Positions 3,082 to 47,707 of a stretch of DNA of 64,000 bases are shown one piece after another. The notes under the pieces were generated by a model, which did not search any database, was not told the DNA's origin, and saw only the letters and a program-made list of their open reading frames with translations. Location of the stretch: NCBI GenBank assembly GCA_958296225.1, contig OY282456.1:1116001-1180000 (forward strand), in the 5' to 3' direction. Position numbers and translations under genes: made by a program. Position 1 is the first letter of the stretch. Each line of letters starts with the position of its first letter. The DNA is from an uncultured Dehalococcoidia bacterium. GTDB taxonomy: Bacteria; Chloroflexota; Dehalococcoidia; Lucifugimonadales; UBA3495.

Positions 3082-3756
3082 TTATCCCTCGAATACAAAC
3101 CCGAAGATCCACGAACATAGTACCAGAAACAGCGCGTCGAAAACCACCAGCATCGGCGCCCACCGCGTCCATACGGGCGTCATCGGCCCGCCTTGCAACG
3201 CCAGCGCCGATGCTTCCACTGCGGCGATGATGACCGGGACTATCACCGGGAAGAACAGCACCGGCAGCAATATCTCGCGGGAGCGGGTCTGGACGGCGAT
3301 GCCGGCGAAGAAGGTTCCCACCGTGGCGAAACCAACGGTTGCCAGCAGGATGACCAGTCCCAGCGCCGGTGAGAGGGTGGGCAAGCCCAGCATCACGGCA
3401 AACACGGGCAGCAATACCGCCTCGATTACCAGCATGAAGATGAGGCTGCTGAGCATCTTGCCCAGGAAAACGGCGTCGCGGCTGACGGGGGCGGCCAGCA
3501 AACCGTCAAGCCCGCCCTGCTCCATTTCGCGGGTGAAAGCGCGGTTCATCGCCAGCACGCCGATGAATGCGTAGGCTACCCAGAGCAAGCCGGGGGCGAC
3601 GGGAACGAGGCTGCCGGGAGCGCGGTTCAGGCCGAAGTTGAACACTACGACTACAATCAGGCCGAATACCAGCGCCGAGCTGATGGTGTCGCGGGAGCGG
3701 AACTCCAGGCGCACGTCTTTCCAGGCGATGGCTAATGCGGCCCGGAGCAATCCCAT
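3082..3756 (-). CDS. ccmB: haem exporter membrane subunit CcmB
   Basis: CcmB is the membrane subunit that pairs with the ATPase CcmA and, with CcmC, drives release of holo-CcmE. The 224-residue protein has six predicted membrane helices and the family's N-terminal AIAWKDVRLEFRSRD and central FTREMEQGGLDGLLAAPV stretches. Between this gene and ccmA lies an inserted, duplicated membrane-protein gene. About 25 bases around the ccmB start codon have a second, imperfect copy near 4168-4218, a footprint of that duplication. Confidence 0.92.
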   Translation of the reverse strand: MGLLRAALAIAWKDVRLEFRSRDTISSALVFGLIVVVVFNFGLNRAPGSLVPVAPGLLWVAYAFIGVLAMNRAFTREMEQGGLDGLLAAPVSRDAVFLGKMLSSLIFMLVIEAVLLPVFAVMLGLPTLSPALGLVILLATVGFATVGTFFAGIAVQTRSREILLPVLFFPVIVPVIIAAVEASALALQGGPMTPVWTRWAPMLVVFDALFLVLCSWIFGFVFEG

Positions 3757-3798
3757 AGCAAAGCGGCGTCCGCTGTCTGGAATCCGCCTAATCAGCCA

Positions 3799-4171
3799 CT
3801 ACGCGCCGGAATTAAGCGAAGCCATGGCTTCGGGGGTTAGAGTAACTGCGCCCGTTGCCGGGTCTTTCCGTCCAAGTTTGGCGACGGCTTTTTCCCGCGC
3901 TCTCCACAGCATCTTTTCGCGTTGCGCCGCCCTGATTGCCGATGCTTTCTCAAACATCTTTCTCACTCCTTTCAAATAGCCCGGCCAGGGGCAGGATGAA
4001 CGACCAGTACAGGTATTTGGTTGCGATTTCAAAGCTGCGATAGGCCCAGAAATCGGAGCCTTCCCACAATTGCAGAACGGCCACGCTGGCGCAGCCGGCA
4101 ATTGCGAAGCCTCCAACCTGCCACCGGATACTACGTTCTACCAGTTCGCCGGGCAAGTCTGACAAACTCAA
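3799..4171 (-). pseudogene. frameshifted duplicate of the neighbouring small membrane protein
   Basis: This stretch is a degraded copy of the gene at 4233-4688. It reads SLSDLPGELVERSIRWQV and the following membrane segments in one frame, then switches frame at a run of T (+ strand, about 3969-3971): this copy has CTCCTTTCAAA where the intact copy has CTCCTTCAAA. After the shift it continues with LKGVRKMFEKASAIRAAQR and TLTPEAMASL. The ATG of the intact copy is replaced by TTG, and the central GRKAGLREGRKEALTEV section is missing. It is therefore probably non-functional, although a sequencing indel cannot be excluded. Confidence 0.75.
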
Positions 4172-8411: not shown

Positions 8412-9962
8412 TTGAAGTATGACTACATCATCGTCGGTGGGGGTTCTGCCGGCTGTACGCTGGCATCGCGGCTGACCGAGGATGCCAACACGTCGGTACT
8501 GCTCCTGGAGGCCGGGCCTGACTACCCGGGCTTCGAGCATCTGCCCATTGACCTGAAAAACGGCAACAATATGTGGCGCTCCGCCTACGGGCCTCACAGC
8601 TGGGGTTTCACGGCCCGGGGAACGCCGCAGCAGGAAGAGGCCATCATTATTCCCCGCGGCAAGGCGATGGGCGGTTCCAGCAGCATCAACGGGCAGGTGC
8701 TGTTTCGCGGGGTGCCGGAGGACTACGACAACTGGGCCGTCTGGGGCAACGACGAATGGTCGTTCACCAAGGTGCTGCCCTACTTCCGGCGCCTGGAAAA
8801 CGACCTGGATTTTGGCGGCGATGACTTCCACGGCAATTCCGGCCCCATTCCGGTGCGCCGCTACCAGCGGGAGGAATGGCTGCCCGTGGCGGCGGCGTTC
8901 TACGACAGCTGCCGGGCGCTGGGGTTTCCCGAAGACCCCGACCAGAATCACCCCGACTCCAACGGCATCGCGGCGCGCCCACTGAATAATATCGACGGGG
9001 TTCGCATGAGCACGTCGCTCACCTACCTGGCTATGTCCCGCCACCGCCTCAACCTGACGGTGCGCGGGAATGTGGTAGCGCGGCGCGTGTTGTTTGAGGA
9101 CAAAACCGCCATCGGCGTCGCGGCGGAAAGCGGCGGGGATGTTTTCGAGGTCTTTGGCGACCAGATTATCCTCAGCGGCGGGGCGATTGCTTCCCCCCAG
9201 ATATTGATGCTGTCGGGCGTGGGGCCGGCCAGTCATCTCCGGGAGATGGGGATTCCGGTGGTTCACGACTTGTCCGGCGTGGGTGAGAATCTGCGGGACC
9301 ATCCCGCCGTGTTCAGCCTCTTTCGCGGTATTGGCGACCCGCCGGAACTTGACGCGCCGAGCATTCAGGTCGGCTTGCGCTACAGCCCGGAGGGTACGGG
9401 CACGCGCGGCGATATTCAGCTGTCGCCGATTCTGATGACCAGTGAGCATCGCCCGGCCAGCGTGAACATTGAGTCGGACGATTTCCACTTCGGGTTCAGC
9501 GCCGCCTTGCAGAATGCCGCCACCGCGGGCCGGCTGCGGCTGGCGTCCACCGACCCGCACGCGCAGCCCGACTTGTTCTACGATTACCTGTCCGACCCCG
9601 TTGACCGTCAGAAAATGCGCGCCGCCGTGCGGCTAGGCTTGCAGATTGCCGAGCAGCCCACGTTCCGGCAATTCGTGGCGGAGCGCCTGTCTCCCACCGA
9701 CGAAGACCTGGCATCCGATGCGGCGCTGGACCAATGGATGCTGCGCAACGCATACACCCAGCACCACTCCTCGGGGACTTGCAAGATGGGGCCGGGTTCG
9801 GACCTGGACTCGGTAGTGGACCAGTATTGCCGCGTGTACGGTATGCGCAACCTGCGCGTGGTGGACGCCTCCGTGATGCCCGACGTTATCCGCGCCAACA
9901 CCAACGCCACCACCATTATGATCGCCGAGCGGGTGGCAGAGTTTATCAAGGAAGGCAAATAG
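8412..9962 (+). CDS. GMC-family FAD-dependent oxidoreductase (choline dehydrogenase-like)
   Basis: A 516-residue glucose-methanol-choline oxidoreductase that oxidises a primary or secondary alcohol using FAD. It has the N-terminal dinucleotide motif IIVGGGSAGC, the GMC signature 1 GGSSSINGQVLFRG, signature 2 GGAIASPQILMLSGVGP, and the C-terminal active-site region QHHSSGTCKMG with the catalytic His near residue 450 and the Asn in RANTNATTIM. It begins at a TTG (TTGAAGTATGAC) with GAGGAG about 8 nt upstream; the FAD motif leaves no room for a later start. The substrate is not evident. The Uma2 array starts 13 nt after its stop. Confidence 0.92.
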   Translation: MKYDYIIVGGGSAGCTLASRLTEDANTSVLLLEAGPDYPGFEHLPIDLKNGNNMWRSAYGPHSWGFTARGTPQQEEAIIIPRGKAMGGSSSINGQVLFRGVPEDYDNWAVWGNDEWSFTKVLPYFRRLENDLDFGGDDFHGNSGPIPVRRYQREEWLPVAAAFYDSCRALGFPEDPDQNHPDSNGIAARPLNNIDGVRMSTSLTYLAMSRHRLNLTVRGNVVARRVLFEDKTAIGVAAESGGDVFEVFGDQIILSGGAIASPQILMLSGVGPASHLREMGIPVVHDLSGVGENLRDHPAVFSLFRGIGDPPELDAPSIQVGLRYSPEGTGTRGDIQLSPILMTSEHRPASVNIESDDFHFGFSAALQNAATAGRLRLASTDPHAQPDLFYDYLSDPVDRQKMRAAVRLGLQIAEQPTFRQFVAERLSPTDEDLASDAALDQWMLRNAYTQHHSSGTCKMGPGSDLDSVVDQYCRVYGMRNLRVVDASVMPDVIRANTNATTIMIAERVAEFIKEGK

Positions 9963-9975
9963 CCGGAGGTCTCTG

Positions 9976-10812
9976 ATGACTACTCCCACCGCTGCCGCCA
10001 GAGCTGTCGGCGCAGTCAAAATGCTGCCCTACCGCAAGCAGGGCGAAATCGACTACGCCAGCCTGGACTTTGACCCCGACGTGCCGGTACGCAAGCCTGA
10101 CGCTATGGAACAGAACCTAGAGCAGGACGAAATCCTCGGCCTCCTGCGCGCCTACATCACCGATTTTAACCGGCGTCCCGACATCTTTCTGGACCGGGAC
10201 ACCAACATTTGCTATGACCCTGGCAATTTGAACGTCCGCATCTCGCCGGACATCTACCTGGCCTTTGGCGTTGACGCCCGCGCCATCCGCCCCCGTAAGC
10301 TGTACCTGCCCTGGGAGGTGGGCAAGCCGCCCGACCTGGCTCTGGAAGTGGCCTCGTCCAGCACCGGGCGGGAGGATGTCAACCGCAAACCGGGCATCTA
10401 CGCCCGAATCGGCATCCCGGAATACTGGCGCTTTGACCCTAGCGACGGCAATTATCACGACGCGCCGTTGACCGGGCTGCGTCTGGTCAACGGCGTTTAT
10501 CAGCCCATAGAACTGACCACCGAACCCGACGGCGTGCTGAAAGGGTACAGCGCGGTGCTGGGGCTGAGCATCTGCTGGGATGAGGGCTGGCCGCGGCTGT
10601 ATGACCCGGCCACCAGAACCTACCTGGAGAACTGGCGGCAAATGGCGGCGGCCCGGCAGACTGCCGAGGCGGAGCGCGATTCCGCTTTAGCCCGAGAGCT
10701 GGTTGCCGAGGCGGAGCGGGATGCTGCCCGCGCCGGAGAGCAGCAGGCCCAGGCAGAAGTTGAACGGCTCCGGGAAAGACTGCGCCGCCTGGAATCGGAA
10801 AGGGAGAACTAG
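9976..10812 (+). CDS. Uma2-family PD-(D/E)XK-like protein, array copy 1
   Basis: A 278-residue member of the Uma2 (DUF820) family, a restriction-endonuclease-like fold of unknown biological role that is expanded in cyanobacteria and Chloroflexota. The candidate active site is present: SPD in VRISPDIYLAF, the EVASSS strand, and the Lys in the NRKPGIYARIG helix followed by EYWRFDP. The C-terminal 50 residues form a charged coiled coil (RELVAEAERDAARAGEQQ). The N-terminus (TTPTAAARAVGAV) differs from the other three copies. GGAGGT lies 6 nt before the ATG. It is the first of four tandem copies and may be cotranscribed with the GMC gene. Confidence 0.85.
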   Translation: MTTPTAAARAVGAVKMLPYRKQGEIDYASLDFDPDVPVRKPDAMEQNLEQDEILGLLRAYITDFNRRPDIFLDRDTNICYDPGNLNVRISPDIYLAFGVDARAIRPRKLYLPWEVGKPPDLALEVASSSTGREDVNRKPGIYARIGIPEYWRFDPSDGNYHDAPLTGLRLVNGVYQPIELTTEPDGVLKGYSAVLGLSICWDEGWPRLYDPATRTYLENWRQMAAARQTAEAERDSALARELVAEAERDAARAGEQQAQAEVERLRERLRRLESEREN

Positions 10813-11005
10813 CGCCGCCGGCGTTGCCCGGCCAGGCATTGGGGTTTTTATGGACGGGAAGAAAGGAGAGACGTACACTCTCCGCTCCGGCGAACCGGCG
10901 TCAATAGTTGTAGCACGGCCTGCAAACGGCAGCCTCCCGCGCCGTTGCCAGATTGTTGTTCCCGCCCTGATGGACGGTAAGTAACCCTGCCCGGAGGTCT
11001 GTAAA

Positions 11006-11821
11006 ATGACCATCGCAACCGAAATCAAAATGCTGCCCTACCGCAAGCAGGGCGCAATCGACTACGCCAGCCTGGACTTTGACCCCGATGTGCCGGTACG
11101 CAAGCCTGACGCTATGGAACAGAACCTAGAGCAGGACGAAATCCTCGGCCTCCTGCGCGCCTACATCACCGATTTTAACCAGCGTCCCGACATCTTTCTG
11201 GATCGGGACACCAACATTTGCTATGACCCTGGCAATTTGAACGTCCGTATCTCGCCGGACATTTACCTGGCCTTTGGGGTTGACGCCCGAGCCATCCGCC
11301 CCCGCAAGCTGTACCTGCCCTGGGAGGTGGGCAAGCCGCCCGACCTGGCGCTGGAAGTGGCCTCGTCCAGCACCGGGCGCGAGGATGTCAACCGCAAACC
11401 GGGCATCTACGCCCGAATCGGCATCCCGGAATACTGGCGCTTTGACCCTAGCGACGGCAATTATCACGACGCGCCGTTGACCGGGCTGCGTCTGGTCAAC
11501 GGCGTTTATCAGCCCATAGAACTGACCACCGAACCCGACGGCGTGCTGAAAGGGTACAGCGCGGTGCTGGGGCTGAGCATCTGCTGGGATGAGGGCTGGC
11601 CGCGGCTGTATGACCCGGCCACCAGAACCTACCTGGAGAACTGGCGGCAAATGGCGGCGGCCCGGCAGACTGCCGAGGCGGAGCGCGATTCCGCTTTAGC
11701 CCGAGAGCTGGTTGCCGAGGCGGAGCGGGATGCTGCCCGCGCCGGAGAGCAGCAGGCCCAGGCAGAAGTTGAACGGCTCCGGGAAAGACTGCGCCGCCTG
11801 GAATCGGAAAGGGAGAACTAG
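11006..11821 (+). CDS. Uma2-family PD-(D/E)XK-like protein, array copy 2
   Basis: A 271-residue protein almost identical to copy 1 from the MLPYRKQG motif onward. The putative catalytic residues are Asp85 (SPDIYL), Glu117 (LALEVAS) and Lys131 (NRKPGIY), with EYW at 142-144. The coiled-coil tail has the two-repeat form ERDSALARELVAEAERDAAR. It is preceded by CGGAGGTCTGTAAA, a good ribosome site that is itself repeated before copies 3 and 4. Confidence 0.85.
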   Translation: MTIATEIKMLPYRKQGAIDYASLDFDPDVPVRKPDAMEQNLEQDEILGLLRAYITDFNQRPDIFLDRDTNICYDPGNLNVRISPDIYLAFGVDARAIRPRKLYLPWEVGKPPDLALEVASSSTGREDVNRKPGIYARIGIPEYWRFDPSDGNYHDAPLTGLRLVNGVYQPIELTTEPDGVLKGYSAVLGLSICWDEGWPRLYDPATRTYLENWRQMAAARQTAEAERDSALARELVAEAERDAARAGEQQAQAEVERLRERLRRLESEREN

Positions 11822-12014
11822 CGCCGCCGGCGTTGCCCGGCCAGGCATTGGGGTTTTTATGGACGGGAAGAAAGGAGAGACGTACACTCTCCGCTCCGGC
11901 GAACCGGCGTCAATAGTTGTAGCACGGCCTGCAAACGGCAGCCTCCCGCGCCGTTGCCAGATTGTTGTTCCCGCCCTGATGGACGGTAAGTAACCCTGCC
12001 CGGAGGTCTGTAAA

Positions 12015-12788
12015 ATGACCATCGCAACCGAAATCAAAATGCTGCCCTACCGCAAGCAGGGCGCAATCGACTACGCCAGCCTGGACTTTGACCCCGATGT
12101 GCCGGTACGCAAGCCTGACGCTATGGAACAGAACCTAGAGCAGGACGAAATCCTCGGCCTCCTGCGCGCCTACATCACCGATTTTAACCAGCGTCCCGAC
12201 ATCTTTCTGGATCGGGACACCAACATTTGCTATGACCCTGGCAATTTGAACGTCCGTATCTCGCCGGACATTTACCTGGCCTTTGGGGTTGACGCCCGAG
12301 CCATCCGCCCCCGCAAGCTGTACCTGCCCTGGGAGGTGGGCAAGCCGCCCGACCTGGCGCTGGAAGTGGCCTCGTCCAGCACCGGGCGCGAGGATGTCAA
12401 CCGCAAACCGGGCATCTACGCCCGAATCGGCATCCCGGAATACTGGCGCTTTGACCCTAGCGACGGCAATTATCACGACGCGCCGTTGACCGGGCTGCGT
12501 CTGGTCAACGGCGTTTATCAGCCCATAGAACTGACCACCGAACCCGACGGCGTGCTGAAAGGGTACAGCGCGGTGCTGGGGCTGAGCATCTGCTGGGATG
12601 AGGGCTGGCCGCGGCTGTATGACCCGGCCACCAGAACCTACCTGGAGAACTGGCGGCAAATGGCGGCGGCCCGGCAGACTGCCGAGGCGGAGCGGGATGC
12701 TGCTCGCGCCGGAGAGCAGAACGCCCAGGCAGAAGCTGAACGGCTCCGGGAAAGACTGCGCCGCCTGGAATCGGAAAGGGAGAACTAG
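12015..12788 (+). CDS. Uma2-family PD-(D/E)XK-like protein, array copy 3
   Basis: A 257-residue copy that is essentially identical to copy 2 up to the coiled coil, where 42 bp (14 residues, one of the two ERD-type repeats) are missing, and which has small substitutions in the tail (QNAQAEAERLRE). The loss keeps the frame. The Asp85, Glu117 and Lys131 site is intact. Confidence 0.85.
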   Translation: MTIATEIKMLPYRKQGAIDYASLDFDPDVPVRKPDAMEQNLEQDEILGLLRAYITDFNQRPDIFLDRDTNICYDPGNLNVRISPDIYLAFGVDARAIRPRKLYLPWEVGKPPDLALEVASSSTGREDVNRKPGIYARIGIPEYWRFDPSDGNYHDAPLTGLRLVNGVYQPIELTTEPDGVLKGYSAVLGLSICWDEGWPRLYDPATRTYLENWRQMAAARQTAEAERDAARAGEQNAQAEAERLRERLRRLESEREN

Positions 12789-12981
12789 CGCCGCCGGCGT
12801 TGCCCGGCCAGGCATTGGGGTTTTTATGGACGGGAAGAAAGGAGAGACGTACACTCTCCGCTCCGGCGAACCAGCGTCAATAGTTGTAGAACGGCCTGCA
12901 AACGGCAACCTCCCGCGCCGTTGCCAGACTGTTGTTCCCGCCCTGATGGACGGTAAGTAACCCTGCCCGGAGGTCTGTAGA

Positions 12982-13797
12982 ATGACCATCGCAACCGAAA
13001 TCAAAATGCTGCCCTACCGCAAGCAGGGCGAAATCGACTACGCCAGCCTGGACTTTGACCCCGATGAGCGGGAGGTGCCGCCGGACGCTATGGAACAAAA
13101 TCTCGAGCTGGTGGAATTTTTTGGCCTCCTCAACGCCCGTTTCACGGATTTCAACGCCCGGCCCGACGTCTTTCTCGATTTTGAGACGTTTATCTGCTAC
13201 GACCCCGGCAACCTCAACGTCCGCATCTCCCCGGACATCTACCTGGCCTTTGGGGTTGACGCGCGGGCCATCCGCCCCCGCAAGCTGTACCTGCCCTGGG
13301 AGGTGGGCAAGCCGCCGGATTTGGCCATAGAAATCGCATCGGAAAGCACCGCTCGCGTGGATGTTCGCCGGAAGCCGACCATCTATGCCCGAATCGGTGT
13401 GCGGGAATACTGGCGCTTTGACCCGACGGGGGGCCGGTATCACGGGCGGCCTATGGCAGGCGAGCGGCTGGTTGACGGCGTTTATCAGCCCATAGAACTG
13501 ACCACCGAACCCGACGGCGTGCTGAAAGGGTACAGCGCGGTGCTGGGGCTGAGCATCTGCTGGGATGAGGGCTGGCCGCGGCTGTATGACCCGGCCACCA
13601 GAACCTACCTGGAGAACTGGCGGCAAATGGCGGCGGCCCGGCAGACTGCCGAGGCAGAGCGGGATTCCGCTTTAGCCCGAGAGCTGGTTGCCGAGGCGGA
13701 GCGGGATGCTGCCCGCGCCGGAGAGCAGCAGGCCCAGGCAGAAGTTGAACGGCTCCGGGAAAGACTGCGCCGCCTGGAATCGGACGCCGTAGATTAG
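12982..13797 (+). CDS. Uma2-family PD-(D/E)XK-like protein, array copy 4 (mosaic)
   Basis: A 271-residue mosaic paralogue. Its first 28 residues match the other copies. The next ~45 then diverge (for example LELVEFFGLLNARFTDF). CYDPGNLNVRISPDIYLAF to PPDL is again identical, a second divergent block follows (AIEIASESTARVDVRRKPT, then YHGRPMAGERLV), and from DGVYQPIELTTEPDG to near the C-terminus it is identical again; it ends in SDAVD instead of SEREN. The putative active site is kept. The alternating pattern points to gene conversion or block-wise recombination between paralogues. Confidence 0.85.
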   Translation: MTIATEIKMLPYRKQGEIDYASLDFDPDEREVPPDAMEQNLELVEFFGLLNARFTDFNARPDVFLDFETFICYDPGNLNVRISPDIYLAFGVDARAIRPRKLYLPWEVGKPPDLAIEIASESTARVDVRRKPTIYARIGVREYWRFDPTGGRYHGRPMAGERLVDGVYQPIELTTEPDGVLKGYSAVLGLSICWDEGWPRLYDPATRTYLENWRQMAAARQTAEAERDSALARELVAEAERDAARAGEQQAQAEVERLRERLRRLESDAVD

Positions 13798-13993: not shown

Positions 13994-15409
13994 ATGACTA
14001 CCCACAACACCCGTATTGAACGCGACTCCATGGGCGAGATGCAGGTTCCCGCCGACGCGCTTTACGGCGCATCCACCATGCGGGCCGTGCTCAATTTTCC
14101 CATTAGCGACCTCCGCTTTCCCCGACAGTTTATCCGCGCCCTGGGCCTCATCAAGCTGGCCGCCGCCCGCACCAATATGGATTTGGGCGTGCTGGACTTT
14201 GCGGTGGGCGAGGCCATCGTGCAGGCGGCGCAGGAAGTGGCGGACGGCAAGCACGATGCGCATTTTGTCCTGGATATTTTCCAGACCGGTTCCGGCACGT
14301 CCACCAACACCAACGCCAACGAAGTAATTGCCAACCGCGCCTCGCAAATCATGGGCGGCGACCTCGGCTCGCGGCTGGTTCATCCTAACGACAACGTGAA
14401 TTTGGGCCAGTCATCCAACGACGTTATCCCTACTGCCATCCACCTGGCCGCTCTGCTGGGCATCCAGGAGGATTTGATTCCGGCTCTGGAGCTGCTGCGT
14501 GGCGCGTTGCAGGAGAAGGCGGACGACTTTTGGCCCATCATCAAAACCGGGCGGACGCATTTGCAGGACGCTACGCCAGTGCGATTGGGGCAGGAGTTCA
14601 GCGGGTACGCCGGGCAAGCGGCATACAGCGTCGCCCGGGCGCGGCGGGCGCAGGATGCGCTGGCCGAGGTTGCGCTGGGCGGCACCGCCGTGGGCACGGG
14701 CGTCAATACGCACCCGGAGTTTTCGGAGCGAACCTGCGCCCGGCTGGGCGAGATGACCGGAGTGAGCATCCGGGAGACGAGCAATCATTTTCAGGCGCAA
14801 TCGGCTTTGGACGGCATCGTGGAGGCCAGCGGACAGTTGAAGACGGTGGCAATCAGCCTGCACAAGATAGCCAACGACATCCGGTTCCTGGGCTGCGGGC
14901 CGCGGGCCGGTCTGGGTGAGATTAACGTCCCCGAAGTGCAGCCGGGGAGCAGTATTATGCCGGGCAAGGTCAACCCGGTGATTTCGGAGTCGGTAATCCA
15001 GGTGGCGGCGCACGTGGTGGGCAACGATGCGGCGGTGGCGCTGGCCGGGGCCGGGGGGTATTTTGAGCTGAACACCATGATGCCGCTGGCGGCGTACAAC
15101 CTGCTGCAATCGGTGTCCCTGCTGGCGGCCTCGGCCCGCAACTTTGCCGACCAGTGCGTGGTTGGCATTACGGCCACCGGCACCGGGCCGGCGATGGTGG
15201 AAAAGGGGTTGATGCTGGGCACGGCGCTGGCGCCGTCCATTGGGTACGACGCCGCCGCCGGGATTGCCAAGAAAGCGGCGGAAACCGGGCAAACCATCCG
15301 GGACATTGCCCGCACCGATACATCCCTGAGCGAGGCCGAGCTGGACGCGCTGCTCAATCCCGCAGAGATGACCAAGCCCAGCCTAGAGGTTCGCGGCGGT
15401 GGCGGGTGA
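13994..15409 (+). CDS. fumC: class II fumarate hydratase
   Basis: Fumarase C interconverts fumarate and L-malate in the citric acid cycle. The 471-residue protein has the superfamily signature GSSIMPGKVNPV, the substrate-site stretches GSGTSTNTNANEVIANRA and GRTHLQDATPVRLGQEF, and HPNDNVNLGQSSND. GRTHLQDATP favours fumarase over aspartase, which usually has GRTQLQDA. The ATG at 13994 starts MTTHNTRIERDSMGEMQVP, the normal N-terminus; the frame upstream has no family similarity. The preceding 196 bp hold no other gene. Confidence 0.9.
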   Translation: MTTHNTRIERDSMGEMQVPADALYGASTMRAVLNFPISDLRFPRQFIRALGLIKLAAARTNMDLGVLDFAVGEAIVQAAQEVADGKHDAHFVLDIFQTGSGTSTNTNANEVIANRASQIMGGDLGSRLVHPNDNVNLGQSSNDVIPTAIHLAALLGIQEDLIPALELLRGALQEKADDFWPIIKTGRTHLQDATPVRLGQEFSGYAGQAAYSVARARRAQDALAEVALGGTAVGTGVNTHPEFSERTCARLGEMTGVSIRETSNHFQAQSALDGIVEASGQLKTVAISLHKIANDIRFLGCGPRAGLGEINVPEVQPGSSIMPGKVNPVISESVIQVAAHVVGNDAAVALAGAGGYFELNTMMPLAAYNLLQSVSLLAASARNFADQCVVGITATGTGPAMVEKGLMLGTALAPSIGYDAAAGIAKKAAETGQTIRDIARTDTSLSEAELDALLNPAEMTKPSLEVRGGGG

Positions 15410-47401: not shown

Positions 47402-47707
47402 TTAAATGACAATCCGCACCGTTGCCACTTCTACTTGGAAGCCGTCGGTGGTGAACTCCTCAATCAGACGCTCTTGCTCACCCGCCGGCGATGCCGGACG
47501 TGTATAAGGGGGGGCCAGATGGCAAGCAATCGCTTCCGCGGCCATTGCCAGCGCATCATCCCAGTCGTCCCCCTGTGAAAAGCAGCCGGGCAACGCCGGG
47601 CAAAGCACCCCATATCCAGGTTCCAGATCGTCGGATATTAAGAGTACCTCAAAATCCTCGCCAATGGTTGGGCCGGTATCCTGGCGAGTTGCAGATGAGG
47701 TAGTCAT
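47402..47707 (-). CDS. HicB-family protein without HicA partner
   Basis: A 101-residue HicB-type antitoxin-like protein: the partly degraded RNase-H-like fold reads YGVLCPALPGCFSQGDDWDD followed by ALAMAAEAIACHL. GGAGG lies 8 nt before the ATG of MTTSSATRQD. No HicA (double-stranded RNA-binding toxin) gene is adjacent, so it may be an orphan or act as a solitary regulator. A hairpin follows it. Confidence 0.75.
   Translation of the reverse strand: MTTSSATRQDTGPTIGEDFEVLLISDDLEPGYGVLCPALPGCFSQGDDWDDALAMAAEAIACHLAPPYTRPASPAGEQERLIEEFTTDGFQVEVATVRIVI

What the first reader, a model, noticed from the sequence alone, without database searches (positions are those of the whole stretch)
9976..13797. 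Mosaic tandem array of four Uma2-family genes
Four Uma2 genes sit on units of 1009, 1009 and 967 bp. Three are almost identical including the spacers; the fourth alternates identical and diverged blocks, as expected from gene conversion. The blocks that vary flank the putative active site, and the coiled coil varies by 14-residue deletion. Uma2 proteins have no proven role; a recombining array with modular variation is reminiscent of diversifying or dosage-amplified systems.
Basis: partly seen in the sequence, partly recalled or inferred. Interest (0 to 1): 0.75.

Follow-up and report, generated by a model that had tools for sequence, protein, structure and literature searches.

The report
Tandem nuclease genes with coil ladders
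A sponge-associated SAR202 bacterium carries about 150 copies of one family of DNA-cutting-enzyme genes, many in tandem arrays that grow, shrink and recombine at fixed chromosomal sites, and one class of them changes the length of its coiled-coil arm in seven-residue steps, a pattern that resembles an antiphage nuclease family whose arm length decides which partner it binds.

Summary
The array is real: four intact Uma2 (PF05685) genes, unit spacing 1009/1009/967. It is one of about 34 Uma2 arrays in this SAR202-type genome (154 genes, 88 loci). Copy 2 is a perfect hybrid (copy 3 up to 11380, copy 1 from 11671), the signature of unequal crossing-over. Copy 4 is a mosaic with identical ends and one diverged tract over the whole catalytic core; its catalytic residues are kept. 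At matching sites in related species the same neighbours hold 0-7 copies. Nearest relatives are same-site genes (46/47), so arrays expand and contract in place rather than hop. Selection is purifying (median dN/dS 0.26, none above 1), so the catalytic domain is not diversifying. What diversifies is the C-terminal helix: between tandem copies 35/40 tail indels are multiples of 7 residues (N-terminal 3/26), replicated in relatives (25/30 vs 1/14). Best reading: solo PD-(D/E)XK nucleases under birth-and-death evolution with a heptad-tuned oligomerisation arm, working like the antiphage Rpn nucleases (four-residue helix repeats) without being members. Anti-element function is inferred, not shown. 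Uma2 arrays are known; the heptad ladder was not found described in the papers searched.

The parts
8412..9962 (+). GMC oxidoreductase, upstream flank of the array
   Evidence: Pfam GMC_oxred_N/C; orthologues adjacent to fumarase in same-genus genomes
9976..10812 (+). Uma2 copy 1 (278 aa), with its own 5' end, 13 bp after the GMC stop codon
   Evidence: PF05685 E 1.9e-16
11006..11821 (+). Uma2 copy 2 (271 aa): hybrid, copy-3-like 5' part and copy-1-like 3' part
   Evidence: 105 positions where copies 1 and 3 differ: 55/55 match copy 3 up to 11380, 50/50 match copy 1 from 11671
11381..11670 (+). interval holding the unequal crossover in copy 2
12015..12788 (+). Uma2 copy 3 (257 aa), coil two heptads shorter
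12982..13797 (+). Uma2 copy 4 (271 aa), mosaic
13060..13491 (+). diverged tract of copy 4 (codons 27-170), spans the catalytic core
   Evidence: dS 0.45-1.05, dN/dS 0.19 and 0.43 in its two main blocks
13475..13784 (+). 3' identity tract of copy 4 with copy 2 (CDS nt 494-803, with a short break)
   Evidence: permutation, 0 of 2000
13269..13314 (+). possible short internal conversion tract in copy 4
   Evidence: p 0.003-0.015
11642..11815 (+). C-terminal helix/coil of copy 2 (residues 213-270)
   Evidence: AlphaFold2, pLDDT mostly 92-98 over the helix
11671..11754 (+). two 42-bp direct repeats (two heptads each) in the coil, collapsed to one in copy 3
10850..10984 (+). spacer 1: degraded 44-codon fragment resembling part of the HicB-fused ORF that occupies this junction in G005
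   Evidence: 49% identity over 39 aa, E 2e-7 for the single comparison
11859..11993 (+). spacer 2, same fragment
12826..12960 (+). spacer 3, same fragment
13994..15409 (+). class II fumarate hydratase, downstream flank
   Evidence: Pfam Lyase_1 and FumaraseC_C

Best explanation
A site-bound tandem array of solo Uma2 nucleases with a PD-(D/E)XK fold. SHOWN from sequence: the genes are intact, keep the active site and evolve under purifying selection. The array grows and shrinks in place by unequal crossing-over and is homogenised by gene conversion. The C-terminal helix changes length by gain or loss of 21-bp (7-residue) units, so near-identical catalytic domains in one array usually carry coils of different length. 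INFERRED: the helix is an oligomerisation arm whose length favours matched-length partners, and the nucleases act against incoming DNA such as phages or mobile elements, with array size tuning dosage and coil length separating paralogues. In this way it would work like Rpn nucleases, in which repeat number in a C-terminal helix decides which partner inhibits the nuclease.
For: 154 Uma2 genes at 88 loci, 100 of them tandem. Copy 2 a perfect hybrid; copy 4 a mosaic. Copy number 0-7 at matching sites in relatives; 46/47 relatives' genes nearest to the same-site gene, 95/100 tandem genes nearest to their own array. Median dN/dS 0.26, none >1; D85 151/154, E117 151/154, K131 146/154. Tail indels multiples of 7: 35/40 against 3/26 N-terminal, replicated 25/30 against 1/14. 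Of 39 coil-class pairs at >=88% aa identity, 35 differ in tail length, 34 by a multiple of 7; compact class 0/14. Period 21/42-nt repeats: 41 of 64 inside Uma2 genes, all in the C-terminal fifth, against 9 of about 99 outside. Continuous C-terminal helix predicted. Fold matches Uma2 crystal structures. Rpn precedent: PMC10327210. Weak matches to PADLOC candidate PDC-S03.
Against: No assay of any kind. The array lies between metabolic genes, not in a defence island. No methyltransferase or antitoxin gene is adjacent. The focal genes' internal Met at the coil start has no Shine-Dalgarno match, so an Rpn-style intragenic inhibitor is not supported there. Coil slippage could be neutral. Dimerisation through the helix was not modelled. 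Reads were not available.
Confidence: 0.5

Rival explanations
1. Neutral birth-and-death: tandem duplication and slippage of 21-bp repeats happen passively, and the nuclease does an ordinary housekeeping job such as DNA repair or processing. Coil length has no meaning as long as the helix is kept.
For: Unequal crossing-over and slippage explain all the variation seen; purifying selection fits any function; a 21-bp repeat unit gives multiples of 7 automatically.
Against: Different loci carry different heptad sequences (QRDDAVA, RLAERRA, AREVAED) yet share the period, which suggests selection for heptads. About 150 copies and the very uneven distribution (52 of 147 genomes in the order have any) are unusual for housekeeping.
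Confidence: 0.3
2. Selfish nuclease genes that spread like free-standing homing endonucleases: they cut empty alleles and are copied into the gap.
For: Empty sites with intact neighbours in relatives; no transposase, inverted repeats or target duplications seen; active sites conserved.
Against: 46/47 relatives' genes are nearest to the same-site gene, so little hopping between sites. No insertion-point signature was found. Homing into the allelic empty site, with copying between strains, was not tested.
Confidence: 0.1
3. Toxin half of a toxin-antitoxin module whose antitoxin has decayed: the spacer fragment is what remains of a HicB-type partner.
For: The same junction holds HicAB in G005 and the spacers keep a fragment like part of that HicB-fused ORF. 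Uma2 was proposed as a likely solo toxin (PMC2701414).
Against: The fragment has no homologue at E <= 0.001 at other sites of this genome or in the 30 relatives searched, and three of its four differences between units are non-synonymous. Many other arrays have spacers too short for a partner gene.
Confidence: 0.07
4. Assembly expansion artefact.
For: Copies 1-3 are near-identical; no reads were available.
Against: The genome is one contig; copies differ in a structured way (hybrid, deletion, mosaic); relatives assembled separately show different copy numbers at the same sites.
Confidence: 0.03

Closest known systems
Uma2 / DUF820 / COG4636 family (PF05685; structures 1WDJ, 3OT2, 6OKH, 9Y1L)
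   Same: Pfam match over cut-off and predicted fold match; known to be expanded: 15 copies in Thermus thermophilus (PMC1274311), 15-17 in some Thermosynechococcus (PMC9403480), 'cassettes of paralogous genes' in cyanobacteria (PMC2701414).
   Different: About 150 copies in one genome; a coil-bearing class with heptad length ladders, whereas the matched solved chains are compact (145-190 residues); evolution at fixed sites resolved by comparing species.
Rpn (recombination-promoting nuclease, COG5464 / PF04754)
   Same: PD-(D/E)XK nuclease domain, C-terminal helix varying by short in-frame repeats, tandem arrays, gain and loss without terminal repeats or target duplications (PMC10327210).
   Different: Different family; 7-residue instead of 4-residue steps; intragenic small inhibitor not supported for the focal genes; antiphage activity untested.
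EcoR124I/EcoR124II specificity subunits (Type I restriction)
   Same: Helical repeat number varies in whole repeat units (TAEL repeats, as discussed in PMC10327210).
   Different: No methyltransferase or specificity subunit beside the array; repeat number there sets DNA spacing.

Membership tests
Uma2 (PF05685) | profile match over the curated cut-off | tested here: met
   53.8-60.7 bits against 27
Uma2 (PF05685) | PD-(D/E)XK fold like solved Uma2 structures | tested here: met
   AlphaFold2 pLDDT 92.9; Foldseek 9Y1L, 6OKH, 3OT2, 1WDJ at E <= 6e-5
Uma2 (PF05685) | conserved catalytic D/E/K residues | tested here: met
   D85, D113, E117, K131 invariant in an alignment of 45; kept in 129-151 of 154 paralogues
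Uma2 (PF05685) | DNA cleavage activity | not testable with these tools
   no assay
Rpn (COG5464) | belongs to PF04754 | tested here: not met
   only Uma2 matched in Pfam
Rpn (COG5464) | C-terminal helix varying by whole short repeats | tested here: met
   as an analogue: 7-residue units instead of 4
Rpn (COG5464) | internal translation start giving a small inhibitor | tested here: inconclusive
   focal internal ATG has no SD match; coil class 23/65 against 13.4 expected, with non-independent paralogues
Rpn (COG5464) | antiphage activity | not testable with these tools
   no assay
Type II toxin-antitoxin | adjacent antitoxin gene | tested here: not met
   spacers hold only a degraded fragment
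Restriction-modification | cognate methyltransferase beside the nuclease | tested here: not met
   immediate neighbours are a GMC oxidoreductase and a fumarase; an orphan methyltransferase elsewhere was not sought
Transposon or insertion sequence | terminal inverted repeats or target-site duplications | tested here: not met
   none seen by eye in empty/occupied comparisons at four sites
Free-standing homing endonuclease | spread into allelic empty sites | tested here: inconclusive
   empty sites exist but genes stay with their site; within-species alleles unavailable

The most novel reading that the evidence does not exclude
Coil length is a pairing code: in each array, near-identical nucleases are kept apart from one another by heptad-step differences in a coiled-coil arm, so that duplicated solo nucleases form separate homotypic complexes with separate control. 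Repeat-number specificity like that of Rpn would then have evolved independently in the Uma2 family, spread through the coil-bearing genes (about 65) of one genome.
Probability: 0.2. Interest if true: 0.8.

Novelty: new variant of a known kind. Interest (0 to 1): 0.6.

Why it matters
Uma2 is a common, much-expanded nuclease family of unknown function. The heptad-step ladder is a concrete, testable property that points to partner selection through the coil, by analogy with Rpn, where repeat number was shown to decide inhibition. The copy-number table at matching sites gives a ready set of alleles, empty, single and multiple, for testing dosage and defence.

Tried and rejected
Donor search for copy 4's diverged blocks: no fetched sequence above about 79% DNA identity, so a recent import from another locus of this genome is not supported. 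Spacer peptide as a conserved small gene: no match at E <= 0.001 in 30 relatives, differences mostly non-synonymous. Simple hopping between sites: rejected by the tree. Diversifying selection on the catalytic domain: rejected at domain level; site-by-site tests were not run. Rpn-type internal start as a general feature: focal ATG without SD; excess in the coil class not independent enough to claim. Tail length modulo 7 across different loci: no single phase, and the regex caught only 24 genes. Viral and plasmid searches gave few matches. NCBIfam gave no match. The sigma-70 scan found no promoter-like site in the array. One script failed on a file name.

Full report
OBSERVATION. The four genes, their coordinates and their spacing are as reported, and all four match Uma2 over the Pfam cut-off. 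Between copies 1 and 2 every difference lies in the 5' part; the 3' parts and spacers are identical. Between copies 2 and 3 the 5' parts are identical and the differences lie in the coil and spacer. At the 105 positions where copies 1 and 3 differ, copy 2 matches copy 3 at all 55 up to 11380 and copy 1 at all 50 from 11671. A single unequal crossover between 11381 and 11670 explains this. Copy 4 shares its first ~26 codons and its last ~100 with copies 1-3; codons 27-170 are diverged. Two runs of identity in the 3' part exceed every permutation. The quiet stretch inside the diverged tract still has dS 0.45, so it is mostly protein constraint, with at most a short conversion tract.

GENOME. The window lies at 1116001-1180000 of a one-contig genome of 3.97 Mb. 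The named relatives found with copy 3 are Dehalococcoidia/SAR202 and other Chloroflexota metagenome genomes. Same-genus genome G001 has a contig of the same length (365149) as MPNC01000004.1, SAR202 bin87, which PMC5649159 lists among its bins from the sponge Aplysina aerophoba. That this window's own organism is a sponge symbiont is inferred from these relatives. Stretches around the hits were fetched; after removing antisense shadow ORFs, 154 Uma2 genes remain at 88 loci, 100 of them in 34 arrays, most with within-array DNA identity of 75-100%. In a sample of 147 genomes of the order, 52 have any Uma2, and this genome has the most first-look candidates (170; the next has 125).

RELATED SPECIES. 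The GMC and fumarase genes are neighbours in the same-genus genomes. The gap is 5-121 bp in 11 of them, 895 bp with one Uma2 in G008, and 998 bp with a HicAB pair in G005. Flank peptides of twelve other Uma2 loci were searched in six relatives, and gap regions of nine of them were fetched. Uma2 copy number at these matching sites ranges from 0 to 7; for example G000 4, G010 3, G004 3, G012 2, G001 1, G003 0, G008 0 at one site, and G000 7 against 1 in five relatives at another. In a tree of 201 genes, 46 of 47 relatives' genes have the same-site gene as nearest G000 gene, and 95 of 100 G000 tandem genes are nearest to a gene of their own array. The flank-gene tree makes G003, which lacks the focal array, the sister of G000, so clean loss, transfer or independent gain must have occurred. 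Four empty/occupied comparisons show no inverted repeats or target duplications by eye.

PROTEIN. AlphaFold2 gives a confident model, pLDDT 92.9, with a continuous C-terminal helix at residues 213-270. The eight Foldseek matches at E <= 0.001 are putative nuclease or uncharacterised chains, among them the Uma2/DUF820 structures 9Y1L, 6OKH, 3OT2 and 1WDJ. D85, D113, E117 and K131 are invariant in an alignment of 45 proteins; in the 154 paralogues D85 is kept in 151, E117 in 151, K131 in 146 and D113 in 129. dN/dS in 113 informative within-array pairs has median 0.26 and maximum 0.62.

COIL LADDER. Indels between tandem copies were sized. In the C-terminal third 35 of 40 are multiples of 7 residues; upstream 3 of 26 are. 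In loci of relatives the figures are 25 of 30 and 1 of 14. Pairs within one array share history, so these counts are not fully independent; by array, multiples of 7 occur in 11 G000 arrays. Of 39 coil-class pairs at 88% amino-acid identity or more, 35 differ in tail length, 34 of them by a multiple of 7, against 0 of 14 in the compact class. Tandem Repeats Finder places 41 repeats of period 21 or 42 inside Uma2 genes, at 0.80-0.96 of gene length, and 9 in 2.5 times as much other DNA. The repeat sequences differ between loci, so the period was reached more than once or is held by selection. In the array at 3137535-3141137 the tails are 101, 87, 59 and 66 residues long on genes 97-98% identical at DNA level. 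Coil tails also occur in a Uma2 protein from another Chloroflexota genome (L325) and on a Leptolyngbya plasmid.

MECHANISM. Shown: duplication by unequal crossing-over, homogenisation by conversion, heptad-step length change, functional constraint. Inferred: the helix mediates oligomerisation, length affects pairing, and the nuclease acts against foreign DNA. The closest precedent is Rpn: PD-(D/E)XK nucleases whose C-terminal helix varies by four-residue repeats, where only matched repeat number allows inhibition, and some of which block phages; rpn genes are gained and lost and form tandem arrays without terminal repeats or target duplications (PMC10327210). Uma2 is not Rpn: it belongs to another family and the intragenic start is not supported in the focal genes. 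Uma2 was earlier called a likely solo toxin forming cassettes of paralogous genes (PMC2701414), and expansions are known in Thermus and Thermosynechococcus (PMC1274311, PMC9403480). In the ten paper searches I found no description of heptad-step coil variation in Uma2; papers outside that library may have one.

LIMITS. No reads, no strains of the same species, no expression data. Gene starts and gene calls outside Uma2 are my own codon-score predictions. Whether coil variation is selected or passive is open.

Noticed in passing
L155, about 3090-4000 (G005, same GMC-fumarase junction): A HicAB toxin-antitoxin pair, with a long N-terminal extension on HicB, sits where this genome has the Uma2 array, so the junction accepts different small modules.
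   Followed up: partly
window 10850-10984, 11859-11993, 12826-12960: Degraded 44-codon fragment in each spacer, similar to part of the G005 HicB-fused ORF.
   Followed up: partly
L264, intergenic stretch around 290-400 (G003, empty site): A near-perfect inverted repeat (TGTCATTCTGAGCGTAGCGAAGAATCTC ... GAGATTCTTCGCTACGCTCAGAATGACA), MITE- or REP-like, occupies an intergenic site that holds four Uma2 genes in this genome.
   Followed up: no
window 47411-47671, minus strand: Another HicB-like reading frame.
   Followed up: no
G000:C1:2307449-2310552: Five-copy compact Uma2 array in which copies 2/4 and 3/5 are near-identical, as if a pair had been duplicated.
   Followed up: no
G133 (same family, other genus): A second genome with very many Uma2 candidates (125 in the first look), including an array with about 700-bp spacing.
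   Followed up: no
L348 (Leptolyngbya sp. BL0902 plasmid NZ_CP046160.1): Four consecutive Uma2 genes on a 26-kb plasmid, two of them with coil-like tails of different length.
   Followed up: partly
window 9976-10040: Copy 1 has a different first ~20 codons from the other three copies and starts 13 bp after the GMC stop codon.
   Followed up: no
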